Shown here piece by piece: positions 6,520-18,549 of a stretch of 18,780 bases of DNA. Position 1 is the stretch's first letter, and each line of letters starts with the position of its first letter. The DNA comes from Streptomyces fulvoviolaceus (GTDB lineage: Bacteria; Actinomycetota; Actinomycetes; Streptomycetales; Streptomycetaceae). The position numbers and the translations under genes were made by a program. The stretch covers positions 1 through 18,780 of the forward strand of contig NZ_JOEY01000097.1 in assembly GCF_000718165.1 (NCBI RefSeq). Direction: 5' to 3'. The notes under the pieces were generated by a model, which saw only the letters and a program-made list of their open reading frames with translations, searched no databases and was not told the DNA's origin.

Positions 6520-7110
6520 TCAGTCACGCTGCCAGGCGTCCAGCAGGGCGAGGGCGTTGTCCACCCCCTGATCGAGGAGCTCGTCGGCGAGTCGGCTGTC
6601 GGTCAAGGCGCGGGACAGCTGCAGCGTCCCGGCCATCATGCCGAGGAGACTGAGCGCCTTCACGCGTGCGGAGGACGGGGCCTCGGGCGCCATGCGGGCG
6701 GCAATGCCCTCGACAAGGATCAGCACACCGTCGGTGTACGCCTGCCTGGTCGTCTCGGTGCAGCGCCCGATCTCGTCGAGCAGAGCGGCGTTGGGGCAGC
6801 CGTCGCCGAGCCTTTCGCGGTGCTGGGGGGAAAGGTACCCCCGCACGATCTGCTCGAGTCCGGCACGGCCGGGCTCGGCCAGCGCGACAACGCTCTCGGC
6901 CTGCACTTTCAACTGGTCGGCGATGGCCGTGGTGACGAGATCATCCTTGGATGCGAAGTGAGCATAGAAGGCCCCATTGGTCAGCCCCGCGTCCTTCATG
7001 AGCGTCGAGACCCCGGAGCCGTCGATACCGTCTTGCTTGAACCGGCGGCCCGCTGTCTCGATGATCCGCCGCCTGGTCTCCGACTTGTGCTCTTTTCCGT
7101 ACCGCACCAC
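6520..7110 (-). CDS. TetR/AcrR-family repressor, paralogue 1
   Basis: This is a 196-residue TetR regulator. Its N-terminal helix-turn-helix runs from about residue 10 to 60 (RRRIIETAGRRFKQDGIDG, then VSTLMKDAGLTNGAFYAHF, then SKDDLV). The ligand domain carries the DGCPNAALLDEI motif. The start is GTG, with GGAG about 8 nt upstream. It is a close paralogue of the next gene at 7249: most of the helix-turn-helix and long C-terminal stretches such as LSLLGMMAGTLQLSRALTD are identical. A likely promoter and dyad lie at 7164-7191, so it is probably autoregulated. Its partner gene may have been the thioesterase whose tail survives at 6426. Confidence 0.9.
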   Translation of the reverse strand: MVRYGKEHKSETRRRIIETAGRRFKQDGIDGSGVSTLMKDAGLTNGAFYAHFASKDDLVTTAIADQLKVQAESVVALAEPGRAGLEQIVRGYLSPQHRERLGDGCPNAALLDEIGRCTETTRQAYTDGVLILVEGIAARMAPEAPSSARVKALSLLGMMAGTLQLSRALTDSRLADELLDQGVDNALALLDAWQRD

Positions 7111-7163: not shown

Positions 7164-7191
7164 ATTCTATGGTATTGCAAACGTAATCCAA
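7164..7191 (-). promoter_or_regulatory. Predicted promoter and dyad of TetR paralogue 1
   Basis: On the minus strand TTGGAT (7186-7191) lies 16 bp from TAGAAT (7164-7169). Between them is an imperfect dyad, with GGTATTGC (7171-7178) against the complement of ACGTAATCC (7181-7189). This is an A/T-rich island in high-GC DNA, as expected for a TetR autoregulatory site. Confidence 0.45.
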
Positions 7192-7248: not shown

Positions 7249-7824
7249 TCAGGCGTCTATCAGTGCGAGGGCGTTGCGGATGCCCTGTTCGAGGAGTTGG
7301 TCGGCGAGTTGCCGGTCGGTCAGGGCGCGGGAGAGTTGCAGGGTGCCTGCCATCATGCCGAGGAGGCTGAGTGACTTCAGGCGTGCCAAGGGCGGGTCGT
7401 GGGGTGCCAGGCGGGCGGCGAAGCCGTCGATGAGGGTCAGCGCGCCGTCGGTGTAGGCCTGCCGGGTTGCGTCCGTGGAGCGTGCGATCTCGTCGAGGAG
7501 GGCGGCGTTGGGGCAGCCGTCCTCGATGCTGTCGCGCTGCTCGGTGGAGAAGTACCAGCGGATCATCTGCTCGAGTCCGGCGCGACCGGGTGCCGCCTGC
7601 GCGACGATGTTCTCGTGCTGTGCGCGCATCTGGTCGGCGACGGCGGTGGCGACGAGGTCGTCCTTGGAAGTGAAGTAGGCGTAGAAGGTGCCGCCCGTCA
7701 GGCCCGCGTCCTTCATGAGGGTCGCGACTCCTGAGCCGTCGATGCCGTTGTGCTTGAGCCGGCGGCCGGCGGTCGTGACGATCCGCTGCCGTGTCTGGTG
7801 TTTGTGTTCTTGCGGGTACCGCAC
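7249..7824 (-). CDS. TetR/AcrR-family repressor, paralogue 2
   Basis: This is a 191-residue TetR regulator. The start is GTG 7824, preceded by a strong GGAGG with a 6-nt gap. Longer open frames upstream run through the neighbouring gene and are not real. The DNA-binding domain covers about residues 10-55 (RQRIVTTAGRRLKHNGIDG, then VATLMKDAGLTGGTFYAYF, then SKDDLV), and the C-terminal domain has DGCPNAALLDEI. It is about two-thirds identical by eye to the TetR at 6520, so the pair is an old tandem duplication. The gene lies just behind the secreted-protein gene, separated by a perfect 12-bp hairpin. It is a candidate repressor of the SDR at 9128 through the operator array at 9967-10025, by proximity only. 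Confidence 0.92.
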   Translation of the reverse strand: MRYPQEHKHQTRQRIVTTAGRRLKHNGIDGSGVATLMKDAGLTGGTFYAYFTSKDDLVATAVADQMRAQHENIVAQAAPGRAGLEQMIRWYFSTEQRDSIEDGCPNAALLDEIARSTDATRQAYTDGALTLIDGFAARLAPHDPPLARLKSLSLLGMMAGTLQLSRALTDRQLADQLLEQGIRNALALIDA

Positions 7825-7838
7825 GGTGTTCCTCCGTT

Positions 7839-7864
7839 GCAGCCGGGGCGTGCGCCCCGGCTGC
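7839..7864 (-). terminator. Perfect 12-bp GC-rich inverted repeat
   Basis: GCAGCCGGGGCG (7839-7850) is followed after two bases by its exact complement CGCCCCGGCTGC (7853-7864). In RNA about 11 pairs with a 4-nt loop would form. It lies 13 nt beyond the stop of the secreted protein and only a few bases before the GGAGG of TetR paralogue 2. There is no T tract. It can act as an intrinsic terminator, an attenuator for the TetR gene, or a DNA-level operator. Confidence 0.6.
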
Positions 7865-7877
7865 CGTCCTGGTCGGG

Positions 7878-8960
7878 TCAGTGGGCCGCGCCTGCAAGGA
7901 GAGCCGGGAAGTTGATCCTGGCGGTCTGCAGTTTCGGGTCGTGGGGCTCGGGGACCCCGCCGTCGGTGACGTACAGGCGGTCTCCGCGAACCGCGGTCGC
8001 TGAGGGTGAGGCGAGGCCGTCCGCACTGGTCAGGACGGGCTTGTAGGTGCCGTTGGGGTAGATCACCACGACCCTGTCCGGGCCGTTGTTCGAGGAGGAG
8101 CCGTTCTGCGCGGCGAACACCACATCGGACCAGGGGGTCAGGAAGCTGAGGTCGTCGATGTTGGGCAGGCCGCCCGCGACCTGGCGGATGGGGCCGGGAG
8201 CGCCGGCGGGGGTGATCGGTACGCGCAGCAGCGTTCCCTTGTTGAAGTTGCTGATCCACAGGGCGCCGTTGTGGAACCTGAGGCCGTTGGCGCCGATCGG
8301 CAGGGCTTCGGTGGGCACGGGGGCGAGAGCGGTGTCGGTCAGCCACGGCGTCGCCGATCCGCCGGACACCGGAACGGACCAGATGACGCCCTTGAGGCTG
8401 TCCGCGATGTAGAGGGTGCCTGTGGCCGAGTCGACGGCCAGCCCGTTGGGGCCCGAGTCGGCGGGCAGAGCGGCGACGCGCTGCGGGCTACCGTCCGCAA
8501 GCAGCTTGTAGACGCCGTTGCGGTCCGCGTTGCCCGGGGCCCACAACGCGTAGTGGACGGTGCCGTCGCTGCCACGGGCGTTGCCGCTGATCGCCTCACC
8601 CACCTGCCCGGTGACCAGCACCGTGCGCTCTCCGGAGGCGGAGATACGCATCAGCTCCGGACCGTGGGTGCGCTGGCACACCGCGCAGCTGCCGAGCATC
8701 GACAGGGTCACCGAGCCGTCGGGGTTGACGGTGATGTTCTCGGGGATCTCGCCGGCCGCGAAGTCGAACGTCGCCGCCGTCCGTACGTCGGTGACCACGG
8801 ACCCGCCGTACGAGCCTCCCGTCCAAGCGGACGCGGACGGCGCCGAGGCCAGGACGGCCGCCGCGGCGGTGACCGCCAGCGCTATGCCGACCTTCTTCTT
8901 CAGGAAACGCTGTGCGCTCGATGCGCTGCGCCGGGCGGTGTGCTGGTGTTGCTGCTGCAT
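7878..8960 (-). CDS. Secreted SMP-30/gluconolactonase-like beta-propeller protein
   Basis: This is a 360-residue exported protein. After a basic N-terminus (MQQQHQHTARR...FLKKK) comes a hydrophobic segment, VGIALAVTAAAAVLASA, ending at a likely signal peptidase I site after APSASA, around residue 45. The mature part has repeated blade-like segments of the SMP-30/NHL type, such as SGPNGLAVDSATGTLYIAD, IGANGLRFHNGALWISN and SATAVRGDRLYVTDGG. It most resembles extracellular sugar-lactone hydrolase-like or scaffold propellers; enzymatic function is not certain. Two nearby cysteines (SCAVC) could form a disulfide. The ATG at 8960 is chosen because it gives a standard signal peptide, although the ribosome binding site is weak. 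It lies 167 bp downstream of the SDR and may be co-transcribed with it. Confidence 0.82.
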   Translation of the reverse strand: MQQQHQHTARRSASSAQRFLKKKVGIALAVTAAAAVLASAPSASAWTGGSYGGSVVTDVRTAATFDFAAGEIPENITVNPDGSVTLSMLGSCAVCQRTHGPELMRISASGERTVLVTGQVGEAISGNARGSDGTVHYALWAPGNADRNGVYKLLADGSPQRVAALPADSGPNGLAVDSATGTLYIADSLKGVIWSVPVSGGSATPWLTDTALAPVPTEALPIGANGLRFHNGALWISNFNKGTLLRVPITPAGAPGPIRQVAGGLPNIDDLSFLTPWSDVVFAAQNGSSSNNGPDRVVVIYPNGTYKPVLTSADGLASPSATAVRGDRLYVTDGGVPEPHDPKLQTARINFPALLAGAAH

Positions 8961-9127
8961 GACTCGCCTGGGCAAATCGACAAGTGGCTGATCAATGGAC
9001 TTCGCGAGACGCCGGGTACATCGGGGAGGTCGGGCGGTGGCGACCCTGTTCGACCACCGCATCCGCTGCCACCTCGTCGAAGACGCGCCGTCGTTTTCGG
9101 GCGGGTCGGGCACGCGACAGGTGGGTG

Positions 9128-9943
9128 TCAGTTCGGCATCCGGTTGAACCGGCGGACGATGCGGTCGAAGATCCGGGCCGGAAGGACGCGGTGGAACACG
9201 CTGATGCCCGCGGCCGTCGAGCCGGCGGTGCGCCGCAGTTTCGGGCTCTTGTCGGTGGCCGCCGCGACGATCACCTTGGCAACGGTGGCGGGATCGTCGC
9301 CGCCGCTGGTGTTCTTCGCCAGCACCTCGTCGAAGGTGCGCCGCCCCGCCGCATAGAGCGGCAAGGGGGTGTCGCCCTGCACGCTGTGGTCCCCGAACGG
9401 GGTGTTGATCGGGCCGGGCTCGACGAGCAGGACCCGGACGCCGTGCTCGCGGACCTCGTGGTCCAGCGACCCGGAGTAGCCCTCGACCGCGTGTTTGGTG
9501 GAGGTGTAGATGGCCATGAACGGGCTGGGGACGAACCCACTGAGGGAGGAGACGTTGATGACGCGTCCGCGCCGTTGCGCGCGCATGTGCGGCAGAACCG
9601 CCTTGGTCGTCCGCATGATGCCGTAGACGTTGACGTCGAAGACCTCCTGCGTCCGGGCGACGGAGAACTCCTCGGCGGCGCCGTTGGCGCCGACGCCGGC
9701 ATTGTTGACCAGGACGTCGATACGCCCGAACCGGTCGATCACCTGCTTGACCACCGAAGCGACCGATTCGTCGCTGGTCACGTCGAGGTCGAGGTAGGTC
9801 ACCCCGGCGGGGGCGGTGACCCGCGCGGTGTTGCGAGCGGTTCCGATCACCTCGAAGCCCGCCGCGGCGAAGGCGCGGGCCGTCTCCTTGCCGACCCCCG
9901 ATGAGGCACCTGTCACGAGCACCACCGGTCGATTTGTCGCCAT
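9128..9943 (-). CDS. Short-chain dehydrogenase/reductase (SDR 1)
   Basis: This is a 271-residue classical SDR with an NAD(P)-binding Rossmann fold. Motifs are TGASSGVG at 11-18, DVT at 54-56, NNAG at 80-83, N105, catalytic S133, and Y146 with K150 in YTSTK. The TARN segment after the second strand has an Arg that favours NADP(H). The PGPINTPF segment is typical of SDRs acting on small alcohols or ketones. The start is ATG 9943, with GGGAG 6 nt upstream. Its promoter (10009-10037) sits inside a repeated operator array, so it is probably tightly repressed and induced by a ligand. The substrate is unknown. Confidence 0.93.
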   Translation of the reverse strand: MATNRPVVLVTGASSGVGKETARAFAAAGFEVIGTARNTARVTAPAGVTYLDLDVTSDESVASVVKQVIDRFGRIDVLVNNAGVGANGAAEEFSVARTQEVFDVNVYGIMRTTKAVLPHMRAQRRGRVINVSSLSGFVPSPFMAIYTSTKHAVEGYSGSLDHEVREHGVRVLLVEPGPINTPFGDHSVQGDTPLPLYAAGRRTFDEVLAKNTSGGDDPATVAKVIVAAATDKSPKLRRTAGSTAAGISVFHRVLPARIFDRIVRRFNRMPN

Positions 9944-9966
9944 CACGAGCTCCCTTGATATTGGCG

Positions 9967-10025
9967 TACGCTCGTATGCCTTACGGTCGTTTGCCTTACG
10001 TTCGTACGACCATATGCCGGTCGTA
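9967..10025. promoter_or_regulatory. Operator array: three 15-bp tandem repeats plus an inverted pair
   Basis: Three units start at 9967, 9982 and 9997 with exactly 15-bp spacing: TACGCTCGTATGCCT, TACGGTCGTTTGCCT and TACGTTCGTACGACC. Each contains TACG-nn-CGTA or a one-mismatch version, itself a small dyad. The third runs into an interrupted palindrome, TACGACC (10005-10011) against GGTCGTA (10019-10025). The array spans the -10 box, the start site and the early leader of SDR 1. It looks like several operator copies for one dimeric repressor, probably TetR-type. Confidence 0.65.
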
Positions 10026-10037
10026 AGCCAATGGCAA
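10009..10037 (-). promoter_or_regulatory. Predicted promoter of SDR 1
   Basis: On the minus strand TTGCCA (10032-10037) lies 17 bp from TATGGT (10009-10014), matching the housekeeping consensus at 5 and 4 of 6 positions. The start of transcription would be near 10002, giving a leader of about 60 nt. The operator repeats cover the -10 box and the region downstream of it. Confidence 0.55.
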
Positions 10038-10138
10038 GTGGTCACGCCCGTTGATCCGGAAAAGGTCCGGGAAATGTGGGGTTCGGTTCGCCAGTACGCC
10101 CAGCGCCGACGGACAGGGTTACCTGCTCACCCCAGGGT

Positions 10139-10339
10139 TCATGCGATCTTGTCGCCGTAGATCTGGCTGACATGGAGCTCGATGAGAACTGGCCGGTCGG
10201 CGATCATCACCTGGCGGTAATCGTGGATCGTCAGGCGCGGCGCCGGGTCCGTCCAGCGTGACGACGCCTTCGGCGATGTGGCGAGTACGCCGAGCGAGCC
10301 GGCAGCCAGAAGCTCCCGAAGATCGCGGTCCTGGCTCAT
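10139..10339 (-). pseudogene. Internally deleted PPOX/F420-type oxidoreductase remnant
   Basis: This 66-residue frame begins with ELLAAGSLGVLATSPKA, which resembles the N-terminus of pyridoxamine-phosphate-oxidase-like (F420/FMN-binding split-barrel) enzymes. It ends with HDYRQVMIADRPVLIELH and SQIYGDKIA, which resembles their C-terminus. The central 70-90 residues that build the barrel and cofactor pocket are absent, and the two ends are joined in frame. The ATG at 10339 overlaps the stop of the imine reductase (ATGA, 10336-10339), so translational coupling survives. The product can hardly bind a flavin. It could be a pseudogene or, less likely, a small retained protein. Confidence 0.6.
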
Positions 10340-17928: not shown

Positions 17929-17954
17929 TACGATAGATGCACGTAACTATCTAA
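17929..17954. promoter_or_regulatory. Operator site 2, in front of the TetR gene
   Basis: The same two half-sites as in site 1, TACGATAG (17929-17936) and CTATCTAA (17947-17954), recur here separated by 10 bp. The site ends 16 bp before the TetR start codon, so it probably mediates autoregulation. TACGAT could also serve as the -10 box, but no good -35 is visible. Confidence 0.6.
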
Positions 17955-17970
17955 CGTGGGCAGGTGAGTG

Positions 17971-18549
17971 ATGAGTCGGGTTTCGCAGGCACAAGCGCTC
18001 GAGAACCGCAGGCGCGCGGTCGCCGCGGCCTCCCAGCTGTTCCGGGAACGCGGCGTGAACGGCATCAGCGTCGCCGACCTGATGAAGTCCATCGGGCTGA
18101 CCACGGGTGGCTTCTACAAGCAGTTCCCGTCCAAGGAGGCGCTGGTGGCCGAGGCGGCTCAAGCCGGTTTCGGGGACCTGGACGTACTCCTGGCGGGGTT
18201 CGACACGGACCACGGCGATCACGACACCGCGCGCGCCGCCCTCATCGACTTCTACCTGTCGGCCGAGCACCGTGACCAGCCCGGCACCGGTTGTCCCACC
18301 GCGGGCTTCGCAGGCGACATGGCTCGCGAGCCCATAGCCGGGGAGGTGCGCGAAACGTACGCAACCGGAGTCCAGGAATTCGCCGCGTGGCTGTCCACCG
18401 ACGCCAACGACGGCCTCCCCATGGTGGCCACTCTGGTCGGCGCGATCCTGCTCGCCCGGGCCACGGCGGGCACAGAACTGTCGGAGAAGATCCTGGAATC
18501 GACCCGCAAGGCCCTGACTGCGTCACAGGGCATTGAACCGGAGTCCTGA
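17971..18549 (+). CDS. TetR/AcrR-family repressor (TetR 3)
   Basis: This is a 192-residue TetR regulator. The N-terminal helix-turn-helix includes NRRRAVAAASQLFRERGVNG, then ISVADLMKSIGLTTGGFYKQ, then FPSKEALV. The ligand domain has GTGCPTAGFAGDM, equivalent to the GCP motif of the two TetR paralogues at 6520-7824, so all three belong to one subfamily. ATG 17971 is chosen because AGGTGA sits 6 nt upstream; a GTG one codon earlier is the alternative. It diverges from SDR 2 and almost certainly binds sites 1 and 2 between the genes, releasing them on binding a small ligand. Confidence 0.93.
   Translation: MSRVSQAQALENRRRAVAAASQLFRERGVNGISVADLMKSIGLTTGGFYKQFPSKEALVAEAAQAGFGDLDVLLAGFDTDHGDHDTARAALIDFYLSAEHRDQPGTGCPTAGFAGDMAREPIAGEVRETYATGVQEFAAWLSTDANDGLPMVATLVGAILLARATAGTELSEKILESTRKALTASQGIEPES

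What the first reader, a model, noticed from the sequence alone, without database searches (positions are those of the whole stretch)
9967..10025. 15-bp-periodic operator array over the SDR 1 promoter
Three units starting exactly 15 bp apart share TACG-n-TCGT, and each contains a TACG-nn-CGTA-like dyad. A further interrupted palindrome, TACGACC/GGTCGTA, follows. The array spans a good -10 box, the start site and the leader. Repressors usually have one or two operators; four or more half-overlapping sites with a 1.4-turn period suggest cooperative loading of dimers on alternating faces, and so a steep response to inducer. I cannot name a regulator with this layout.
Basis: partly seen in the sequence, partly recalled or inferred. 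Interest (0 to 1): 0.72.

Follow-up and report, generated by a model that had tools for sequence, protein, structure and literature searches.

The report
Tandem TetR operators at dehydrogenase promoter
Three short mirror-symmetric DNA sites, spaced exactly 15 bases apart, sit on the start point of a Streptomyces enzyme gene and are most likely parking places for a repressor protein encoded just downstream; the layout is real and conserved, and broadly similar multi-site arrangements are already known.

Summary
Three exact ACGNNCGT dyads stand 15 bp apart at 9967-10006, at the start site and in the leader of the SDR gene (minus strand, ATG at 9943), behind a TTGCCA-17-TATGGT promoter. Of 35 exact hits of a two-unit pattern in the genome-contig collection, 33 lie 46-64 bp before a related SDR gene (Streptomyces, Streptacidiphilus, Kribbella, one untitled actinobacterium). 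One more has a matching leader but a late-starting SDR match, and one is cut by the end of the fetched DNA. Of 31 array promoters 23 have two units and 8 three.

The array tracks one TetR clade. TetB (7249-7824), encoded two genes downstream, is near 19 of 31 array promoters and 1 of 27 others; that one carries a decayed array. The sister TetR, TetA (6520-7110), has a single related site upstream of its own gene.

Best reading: a local TetR repressor with tandem operators that block initiation or promoter escape, and that also control TetB itself. Binding, co-transcription, cooperativity and inducer are untested. EthR, SCO7222, ActR, RolR and QacR are precedents for multi-site TetR control. 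Novelty is modest.

The parts
9997..10006 (-). operator unit 1 (TACGAACGTA), centred about on the predicted transcription start
   Evidence: Its outer T and A, which were not used to select promoters, are kept in 31 of 31 array promoters
9982..9991 (-). operator unit 2 (AACGACCGTA), centre about +16
   Evidence: Outer A at its 3' side 31 of 31; its 5' outer base T in 27 and A in 4 of 31
9967..9976 (-). operator unit 3 (TACGAGCGTA), centre about +31, in the leader
   Evidence: Three units in 8 of 31 array promoters, of which L071 is probably spurious
10032..10037 (-). -35 box TTGCCA
   Evidence: its bases are the commonest at those positions in 31 promoters, 81-90% each
10009..10014 (-). -10 box TATGGT, 17-bp spacer
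   Evidence: A and T at its second and third positions in 31 of 31 promoters
10005..10025 (.). interrupted palindrome TACGACC-N7-GGTCGTA across the -10 box, containing two one-mismatch dyads; possible weak extra sites
   Evidence: only partly conserved, absent in L027, L078 and one of two L074 promoters
9128..9943 (-). SDR oxidoreductase (adh_short; NCBIfam subfamily PRK06179), first gene behind the array
7878..9113 (-). second gene of the string, weak NHL / SMP-30-like match
   Evidence: lies between SDR and tetB in many orthologous loci
7249..7824 (-). TetB, TetR-family regulator, proposed repressor of the array
6520..7110 (-). TetA, sister TetR (69% identical to TetB), possible second reader of the same site type
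7174..7187 (-). single related site ATTACGTTTGCAAT upstream of TetA
   Evidence: a site with 1-2 mismatches to TTACGNNCGTAA in 20 of 20 TetA-clade rows of at least 84% identity. The sigma-70 scan found no promoter there

Best explanation
The feature is a tandem array of three single-dimer TetR operators (unit TTACGNNCGTAA-like, 15-bp step) laid over the start site and leader of the SDR-o7878-tetB gene string. TetB, encoded in that string, most likely binds the array and blocks RNA polymerase at initiation or promoter escape. An unknown small molecule, probably a substrate or product of the SDR pathway, would release it. TetB has no comparable site and no promoter-like match of its own just upstream, so the array probably also makes TetB negatively autoregulated. 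The paralogue TetA has a single related site upstream of its own gene and may bind the array too. Shown here: the array, its fixed step, its conservation, its attachment to this SDR promoter and its co-occurrence with the TetB clade. Inferred: binding, repression, co-transcription, ligand, and any cooperativity between neighbouring dimers.
For: Fixed step: among 58 distinct SDR promoters, exact pairs of ACGNNCGT (spacings 8-44 tested) occur at 15 bp in 27, and otherwise only at 19 (1), 30 (5) and 34 (1). Over 48 loci and 951,578 bases, 29 exact pairs are at 15 bp and at most 4 at any other spacing up to 60. Place: of 35 genome-contig hits of TACGNNCGTAAGNCAWACGNNCGTA, 33 have an SDR match starting 46-64 bp on. 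In 392 genomes of the genus, 31 array-like places in 21 genomes were counted from the list; 30 lie beside an SDR listed, and all 21 genomes are among the 54 of 392 with the SDR and the 51 of 392 with a TetB/TetA-type match. Regulator: TetB of at least 75% identity in the fetched locus of 19 of 31 array promoters against 1 of 27 others (Fisher p 3.3e-6, relatedness not corrected for; the 1, L065, has an array whose middle unit is decayed). In the TetB clade 18 of 21 tree rows have an array within 6 kb; the other three are L131 (contig ends before the SDR), L065 and L143 (5' part of the SDR lost). The array follows the TetR and not only the SDR subtype: SDR paralogues 57-59% identical also carry it near TetA or TetB (L062, L067, L069, L132). 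Unit: lone symmetric sites near relatives, for example GCATTACGGTCGTAATCC between a TetR and an SDR in L158, and ATTACGNNCGTAAT upstream of OYE genes. Promoter overlap. TetB: best match to TTACGNNCGTAA in the 150 bases upstream has 4-5 mismatches in 20 of 20 rows, and no promoter-like site in 7822-8025.
Against: No binding or expression data. 12 of 31 array promoters have no TetB of at least 75% in the locus: 9 have only TetA-type proteins and 3 have neither (L076, L081, L089), although those three genomes hold a TetB elsewhere. The Fisher test ignores shared ancestry. Promoters were selected by the dyad cores, so core conservation is partly built in, and the linker AAG-N-CAT is also well conserved, so the element as a whole, not only its half-sites, is under constraint or recently shared. 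With one mismatch allowed, pairs also appear at 8, 23, 19 and 34 bp in 22, 22, 13 and 10 of 58 promoters, from the weaker upstream dyads. The 15-bp step could partly reflect descent from one duplication.
Confidence: 0.8

Rival explanations
1. TetA, or TetA and TetB together, rather than TetB alone, is the physiological repressor of the array.
For: A related site lies upstream of TetA. Arrays persist in three genomes with only a TetA-type match, G207, G288 and G284. Arrays with other flanks (L027, L078 and one in L074) go with TetA-like proteins 71-73% identical to TetA.
Against: Of 20 TetA-clade rows of at least 84% identity, 11 have no array within 6 kb (one of the 11, L094, has a two-mismatch array), while 18 of 21 TetB-clade rows do. 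TetB's helix-turn-helix stretch (window LTGGTFYAYF, mostly LTNGTFYAYF) differs from TetA's (LTNGAFYAHF).
Confidence: 0.3
2. The repeats are a fixed-phase cooperative array: neighbouring dimers on opposite faces help each other to bind, and unit number sets the steepness of the response.
For: The 15-bp step is constant among exact pairs while the distance from the last unit to the ATG takes nine values (eight without L071). CprB, a TetR-family pair of dimers on opposite sides of the DNA, and QacR bind cooperatively (PMC4150764, passages).
Against: No measurement. Orthologous arrays vary between two and three units, so three is not essential. Common ancestry can also keep the step constant.
Confidence: 0.4
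3. The repeats act in the leader RNA (attenuation or translation control) instead of as DNA operators.
For: Units 2 and 3 lie in the predicted 5' leader.
Against: No Rfam match at gathering threshold in the window. Unit 1 sits on the predicted start site. Lone copies of the same dyad occur upstream of other genes, and no intrinsic-terminator-like site was found in 9900-10140.
Confidence: 0.04
4. Chance repeat or a slippage remnant without function.
For: Unit number differs between relatives.
Against: 0 of 400 simulations gave an equal-step triple. Outer bases of the dyads that were not used for selection are kept in 31 of 31 promoters, and 33 of 35 hits in an independent collection sit at the same place before an SDR.
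Confidence: 0.01

Closest known systems
SCO7222 / SCO7223 and ActR / ActA in Streptomyces coelicolor (PMC3511530, passages read)
   Same: Streptomyces TetR-family repressors with three operators and three gel-shift complexes; SCO7222 represses an oxidoreductase gene (monooxygenase).
   Different: Divergent gene pairs; SCO7222 protects three discrete regions rather than one contiguous array; other operator sequence (TGGAACGNCGTTCCA).
EthR of Mycobacterium tuberculosis (PMC9210681 section 10; PMC5403819 passages)
   Same: TetR-family repressor on a 55-bp operator that contains two copies of a 15-nt direct repeat; several dimers bind cooperatively.
   Different: Divergent ethA-ethR region, different sequence; cooperativity is reported there and only proposed here.
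RolR and QacR (PMC9210681 section 10), CprB (PMC4150764 passages)
   Same: Two TetR-family dimers on one operator; QacR and RolR operators lie at or downstream of the start site and block promoter clearance or act as a roadblock.
   Different: One operator of two dimer sites, not two to three equal units at a 15-bp step.
AtsR of Corynebacterium glutamicum (PMC9210681 section 10)
   Same: Same unit geometry: 5-bp half-sites with a 2-bp gap (TGCAA-N2-TTGCA against TTACG-N2-CGTAA), one homodimer per site; the regulator gene is the second gene of the operon it controls.
   Different: Single site, other sequence.
NemR / AltR type redox TetR repressors (PMC13178969 passages; PDB 4yze by fold)
   Same: Fold neighbour of the TetB model; a Cys is invariant in the 23 aligned relatives (C104); some source names call relatives 'repressor for nem operon'; OYE genes lie in the window.
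   Different: 18-19% identity to NemR; operator sequence differs; redox sensing untested.

Membership tests
TetR-family repressor and operator | N-terminal TetR_N DNA-binding domain in the candidate regulator | tested here: met
   PF00440 in TetA, TetB and TetC above the gathering score; fold matches of the TetB model to TetR-family structures
TetR-family repressor and operator | short dyad operator overlapping the target promoter | tested here: met
   sequence and promoter prediction only
TetR-family repressor and operator | operator conserved with the regulator across genomes | tested here: met
TetR-family repressor and operator | direct binding and ligand release | not testable with these tools
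   needs gel shift, footprint and reporter assays
Multi-dimer cooperative TetR operators (EthR / QacR type) | two or more adjacent dimer-sized sites | tested here: met
   two or three units at 15 bp in 31 promoters
Multi-dimer cooperative TetR operators (EthR / QacR type) | measured cooperativity | not testable with these tools
   none available
NemR-type electrophile sensor | conserved redox-active cysteine at the NemR position | tested here: inconclusive
   C104 invariant in 23 aligned relatives, but not aligned residue by residue to NemR, and the GC[P/A] pattern is missing in many more distant relatives
NemR-type electrophile sensor | response to electrophiles | not tested
   -

The most novel reading that the evidence does not exclude
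A phase-locked TetR array in which operator number is an evolutionary dial. TetB dimers stack on 15-bp units at alternating DNA faces, and Streptomyces promoters with one, two or three units form a natural series with graded steepness of induction of a self-repressing SDR-TetR operon.
Probability: 0.3. Interest if true: 0.55.

Novelty: new member of a known kind. Interest (0 to 1): 0.38.

Why it matters
It gives a conserved Streptomyces regulator, for which I found no description in the searches made, a predicted binding site, target operon and autoregulatory circuit, all testable in one gel-shift series. The orthologues provide one-, two- and three-unit promoters, which would let the question 'what do extra TetR operators buy?' be measured with natural variants. 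If cooperative, it would also make a compact tunable promoter part.

Tried and rejected
Tried and set aside. (1) First own-genome pattern was mis-spaced by one base; replaced. (2) Reading the array as CGTA-N5-TACG dyads: set aside because lone TTACGNNCGTAA sites exist without a partner and because the outer bases of the outer half-sites are kept in 31 of 31 promoters; the conserved linker leaves it not strictly excluded. (3) Leader RNA element: no Rfam match. (4) TetC (17968-18549) as regulator: a different-looking palindrome lies at its own start (by eye); its linkage to arrays was not counted. (5) Wider taxa: 394 genomes of the class gave 4 with a two-unit match, two of them (G590, G669) GC-rich and not followed up. 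In 392 genomes of the genus 28 matched. By my count of the listed places 38 are distinct: 31 array-like (30 beside an SDR, 1 a promoter without the SDR, L222) and 7 that look like chance matches (read by eye). (6) Exact-motif text search of the paper library: seven hits for six spellings, by their titles on other topics (listing only); a search for tandem TetR operators in Streptomyces had no hit. (7) TetB structure model: mean pLDDT 77, nearest fold 2fd5 with TM 0.66-0.69; too loose to model neighbouring dimers. (8) Sigma-70 scan upstream of TetA found no promoter, so a separate promoter for TetA rests on the conserved block alone.

Rows dropped before counts. One search counts only distinct promoters with 130 bases in hand and SDR matches of at least 50% identity over at least 200 aa. 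Loci were chosen from the best SDR hits and TetR hits, not all of them, so presence of a TetR in the TetR-chosen loci is biased. One search leaves out TetR matches under 150 aa, under 50% identity, with stops, or identical to an earlier one, and asks for A/T at 3 of 4 outer positions of a pair. One search listed 120 of 5386 proteins; 16 were used in the alignment.

Full report
What was checked. The window is the whole of contig C97 of an 11.58 Mb genome. The genus is Streptomyces by inference: contigs of genus-mates have the same lengths as named Streptomyces records (1,520,852 and 1,104,483 bases). The three TACGNTCGT units are at 9967, 9982 and 9997, exactly 15 bp apart. The full dyad TACG-NN-CGTA is present in units 1 and 3, with one outer base off in the middle unit. 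Chance is excluded: 0 of 200 shuffles had three copies, and 0 of 400 Markov simulations had any equal-step triple of ACGNNCGT. In the own genome no place outside the array comes nearer to the two-unit pattern than 3 mismatches.

Promoter frame. On the minus strand the promoter is TTGCCA (10037-10032), 17 bp, TATGGT (10014-10009). By the usual distance the start would be near 10002, so unit 1 is centred about on +1, unit 2 on +16 and unit 3 on +31 (inference). The SDR start codon is at 9943. The interrupted palindrome at 10005-10025 covers the -10 box and holds two one-mismatch dyads, 8 and 19 bp upstream of unit 1. Such dyads occur in 22 and 11 of 31 array promoters. The palindrome is missing in L027, L078 and one of the two L074 promoters.

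Conservation. The SDR was sought in 61 genomes (own plus 60 relatives; 6 of 61 with E up to 1e-60) and then in 392 genomes of the genus (54 of 392 with E up to 1e-80). From 58 distinct SDR promoters, 31 carry the array with at most one mismatch in two units and 27 do not. Of the 31, 23 have two units and 8 have three. Of those 8, four are exact in all three units (window, L068, L090, L132), three have one mismatch in one unit (L062, L064, L066), and in L071 the third is probably spurious. Exact pairs are at 15 bp in 27 promoters, and otherwise at 19 in 1, 30 in 5 (a multiple of the step) and 34 in 1. With one mismatch allowed, 15 bp leads with 31, followed by 8 and 23 bp with 22 each, 19 with 13 and 34 with 10, as expected from the weaker upstream dyads. 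The distance from the last unit to the ATG takes nine values, so the region is not frozen as a whole. This suggests, but does not prove, a constraint on phase, because shared ancestry also keeps distances. Since promoters were chosen by the dyad cores, core conservation is partly built in; the outer T and A of unit 1 and the 3' outer A of unit 2, not used for the choice, are kept in 31 of 31. The linker (AAG-N-CAT) is conserved too.

Independent scan. The pattern TACGNNCGTAAGNCAWACGNNCGTA in genome contigs gave 35 loci: 31 titled Streptomyces, 2 Kribbella, 1 Streptacidiphilus carbonis and 1 'Actinobacteria bacterium OV320'. In 33 of 35 an SDR match of 57-97% identity starts 46-64 bp after the start of the pattern. 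In L190 (Streptomyces violaceus NRRL B-2867, SDR 97% to the window's) the leader and first codons match but the SDR alignment begins later. L174 ends 71 bases on. Thirty of the 35 have two units and 5 have three. In the genus sample 28 of 392 genomes matched a looser pattern. By my count 31 of 38 places are array-like, 30 of them beside an SDR, in 21 genomes, all 21 of which also have the SDR and a TetB/TetA-type match (51 of 392).

Which regulator. TetB of at least 75% identity lies in the fetched locus of 19 of 31 array promoters and of 1 of 27 others (Fisher p 3.3e-6; not corrected for relatedness). The one exception, L065, has two intact units around a decayed middle unit. TetA or TetB of at least 60%: 28 of 31 against 15 of 27 (p 0.006), with a selection bias because part of the loci were fetched by TetR. 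The three array promoters without either nearby (L076, L081, L089) lie in G252, G164 and G316, which hold TetB elsewhere. In a tree of 89 TetRs the TetB clade (21 rows, support 99/90) has 18 rows with an array within 6 kb. The other three are explained by a contig end (L131), the decayed array (L065) and a lost SDR 5' end (L143). TetA is the sister clade. TetA-clade genes have one conserved site of the form GGATTACGTTCGCAATACC upstream (1-2 mismatches to TTACGNNCGTAA in 20 of 20 rows of at least 84%), although the sigma-70 scan finds no promoter there. TetB rows have no such site (best 4-5 mismatches in 20 of 20), and no promoter-like site was found in 7822-8025. TetB is therefore probably expressed from the array promoter (inference).

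Unit and mechanism. Lone copies of the symmetric site occur near relatives: between a divergent TetR and an SDR (L158), upstream of OYE genes (L138, L141, L144, L153, L170), and twice, far apart, before the SDR of L072/L044. About half of the tree rows show neither array nor lone site within 6 kb (45 of 89), so the regulon of the wider family is not explained. The lone sites point to a unit of 5-bp half-sites with a 2-bp gap, the geometry reported for AtsR (TGCAA-N2-TTGCA, one homodimer; PMC9210681, section 10 read). Three abutting dimer sites across +1 to about +36 would block open-complex formation or promoter escape, as reported for QacR (-6 to +21) and, further downstream, RolR (same section). 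At 15 bp, successive sites are about 1.4 turns apart, so neighbours would lie on roughly opposite faces (arithmetic). Whether they cooperate is unknown.

Comparison. EthR (55-bp operator, 15-nt repeats, octamer), SCO7222 and ActR (three operators), QacR, CprB and RolR (pairs of dimers) cover the kind. What differs is a contiguous run of equal dyads at a strict 15-bp step in the leader, with two or three units among orthologues. No held paper was found to print the motif, in the six spellings searched, in a regulator context (titles only), and one narrow search for tandem TetR operators in Streptomyces found none; this does not show that the regulator is undescribed elsewhere. Verdict: real, conserved, most likely a TetB operator array; new member of a known kind.

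Noticed in passing
window 7839-7864: GC-rich perfect inverted repeat (GCAGCCGGGGCGCACGCCCCGGCTGC, 12-bp stem) between o7878 and tetB; a perfect stem of at least 8 bp lies in the same stretch in 11 of 20 TetB rows. It may tune TetB level within the operon.
   Followed up: partly
L015/L028 and L016/L029 (own contig C62): Two SDR paralogues (62% and 59% identical) have pairs of GAAACCGATCGGTTTC-like palindromes instead of the array, so this SDR family seems to recruit different operators.
   Followed up: no
L222 (G278:C1:7628221): Intact array promoter, TTGCCA/TATGGT and two units, with no SDR in the roughly 540 bases translated behind it and none listed there: a probable solo remnant.
   Followed up: partly
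L138, L141, L144, L153, L170: Single ATTACGNNCGTAAT sites 115-159 bp upstream of OYE (Oxidored_FMN) genes in loci with TetA-like regulators, suggesting a wider regulon of single sites.
   Followed up: partly
window 17931-17956: Other palindrome-like sequence (CGATAGATGCACGTAACTATCTAACG) just before TetC, a candidate TetC operator (by eye).
   Followed up: no
L175, L180: Kribbella loci (a different actinobacterial genus) carry the same array, SDR (79-80%) and TetB (72-74%), which could mean transfer between genera.
   Followed up: no
array units, 31 promoters: The dyad centre is asymmetric in both aligned units: its first base is A in 30 of 31 (unit 1) and 27 of 31 (unit 2), while its second base varies, so the units are also direct repeats.
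   Followed up: no
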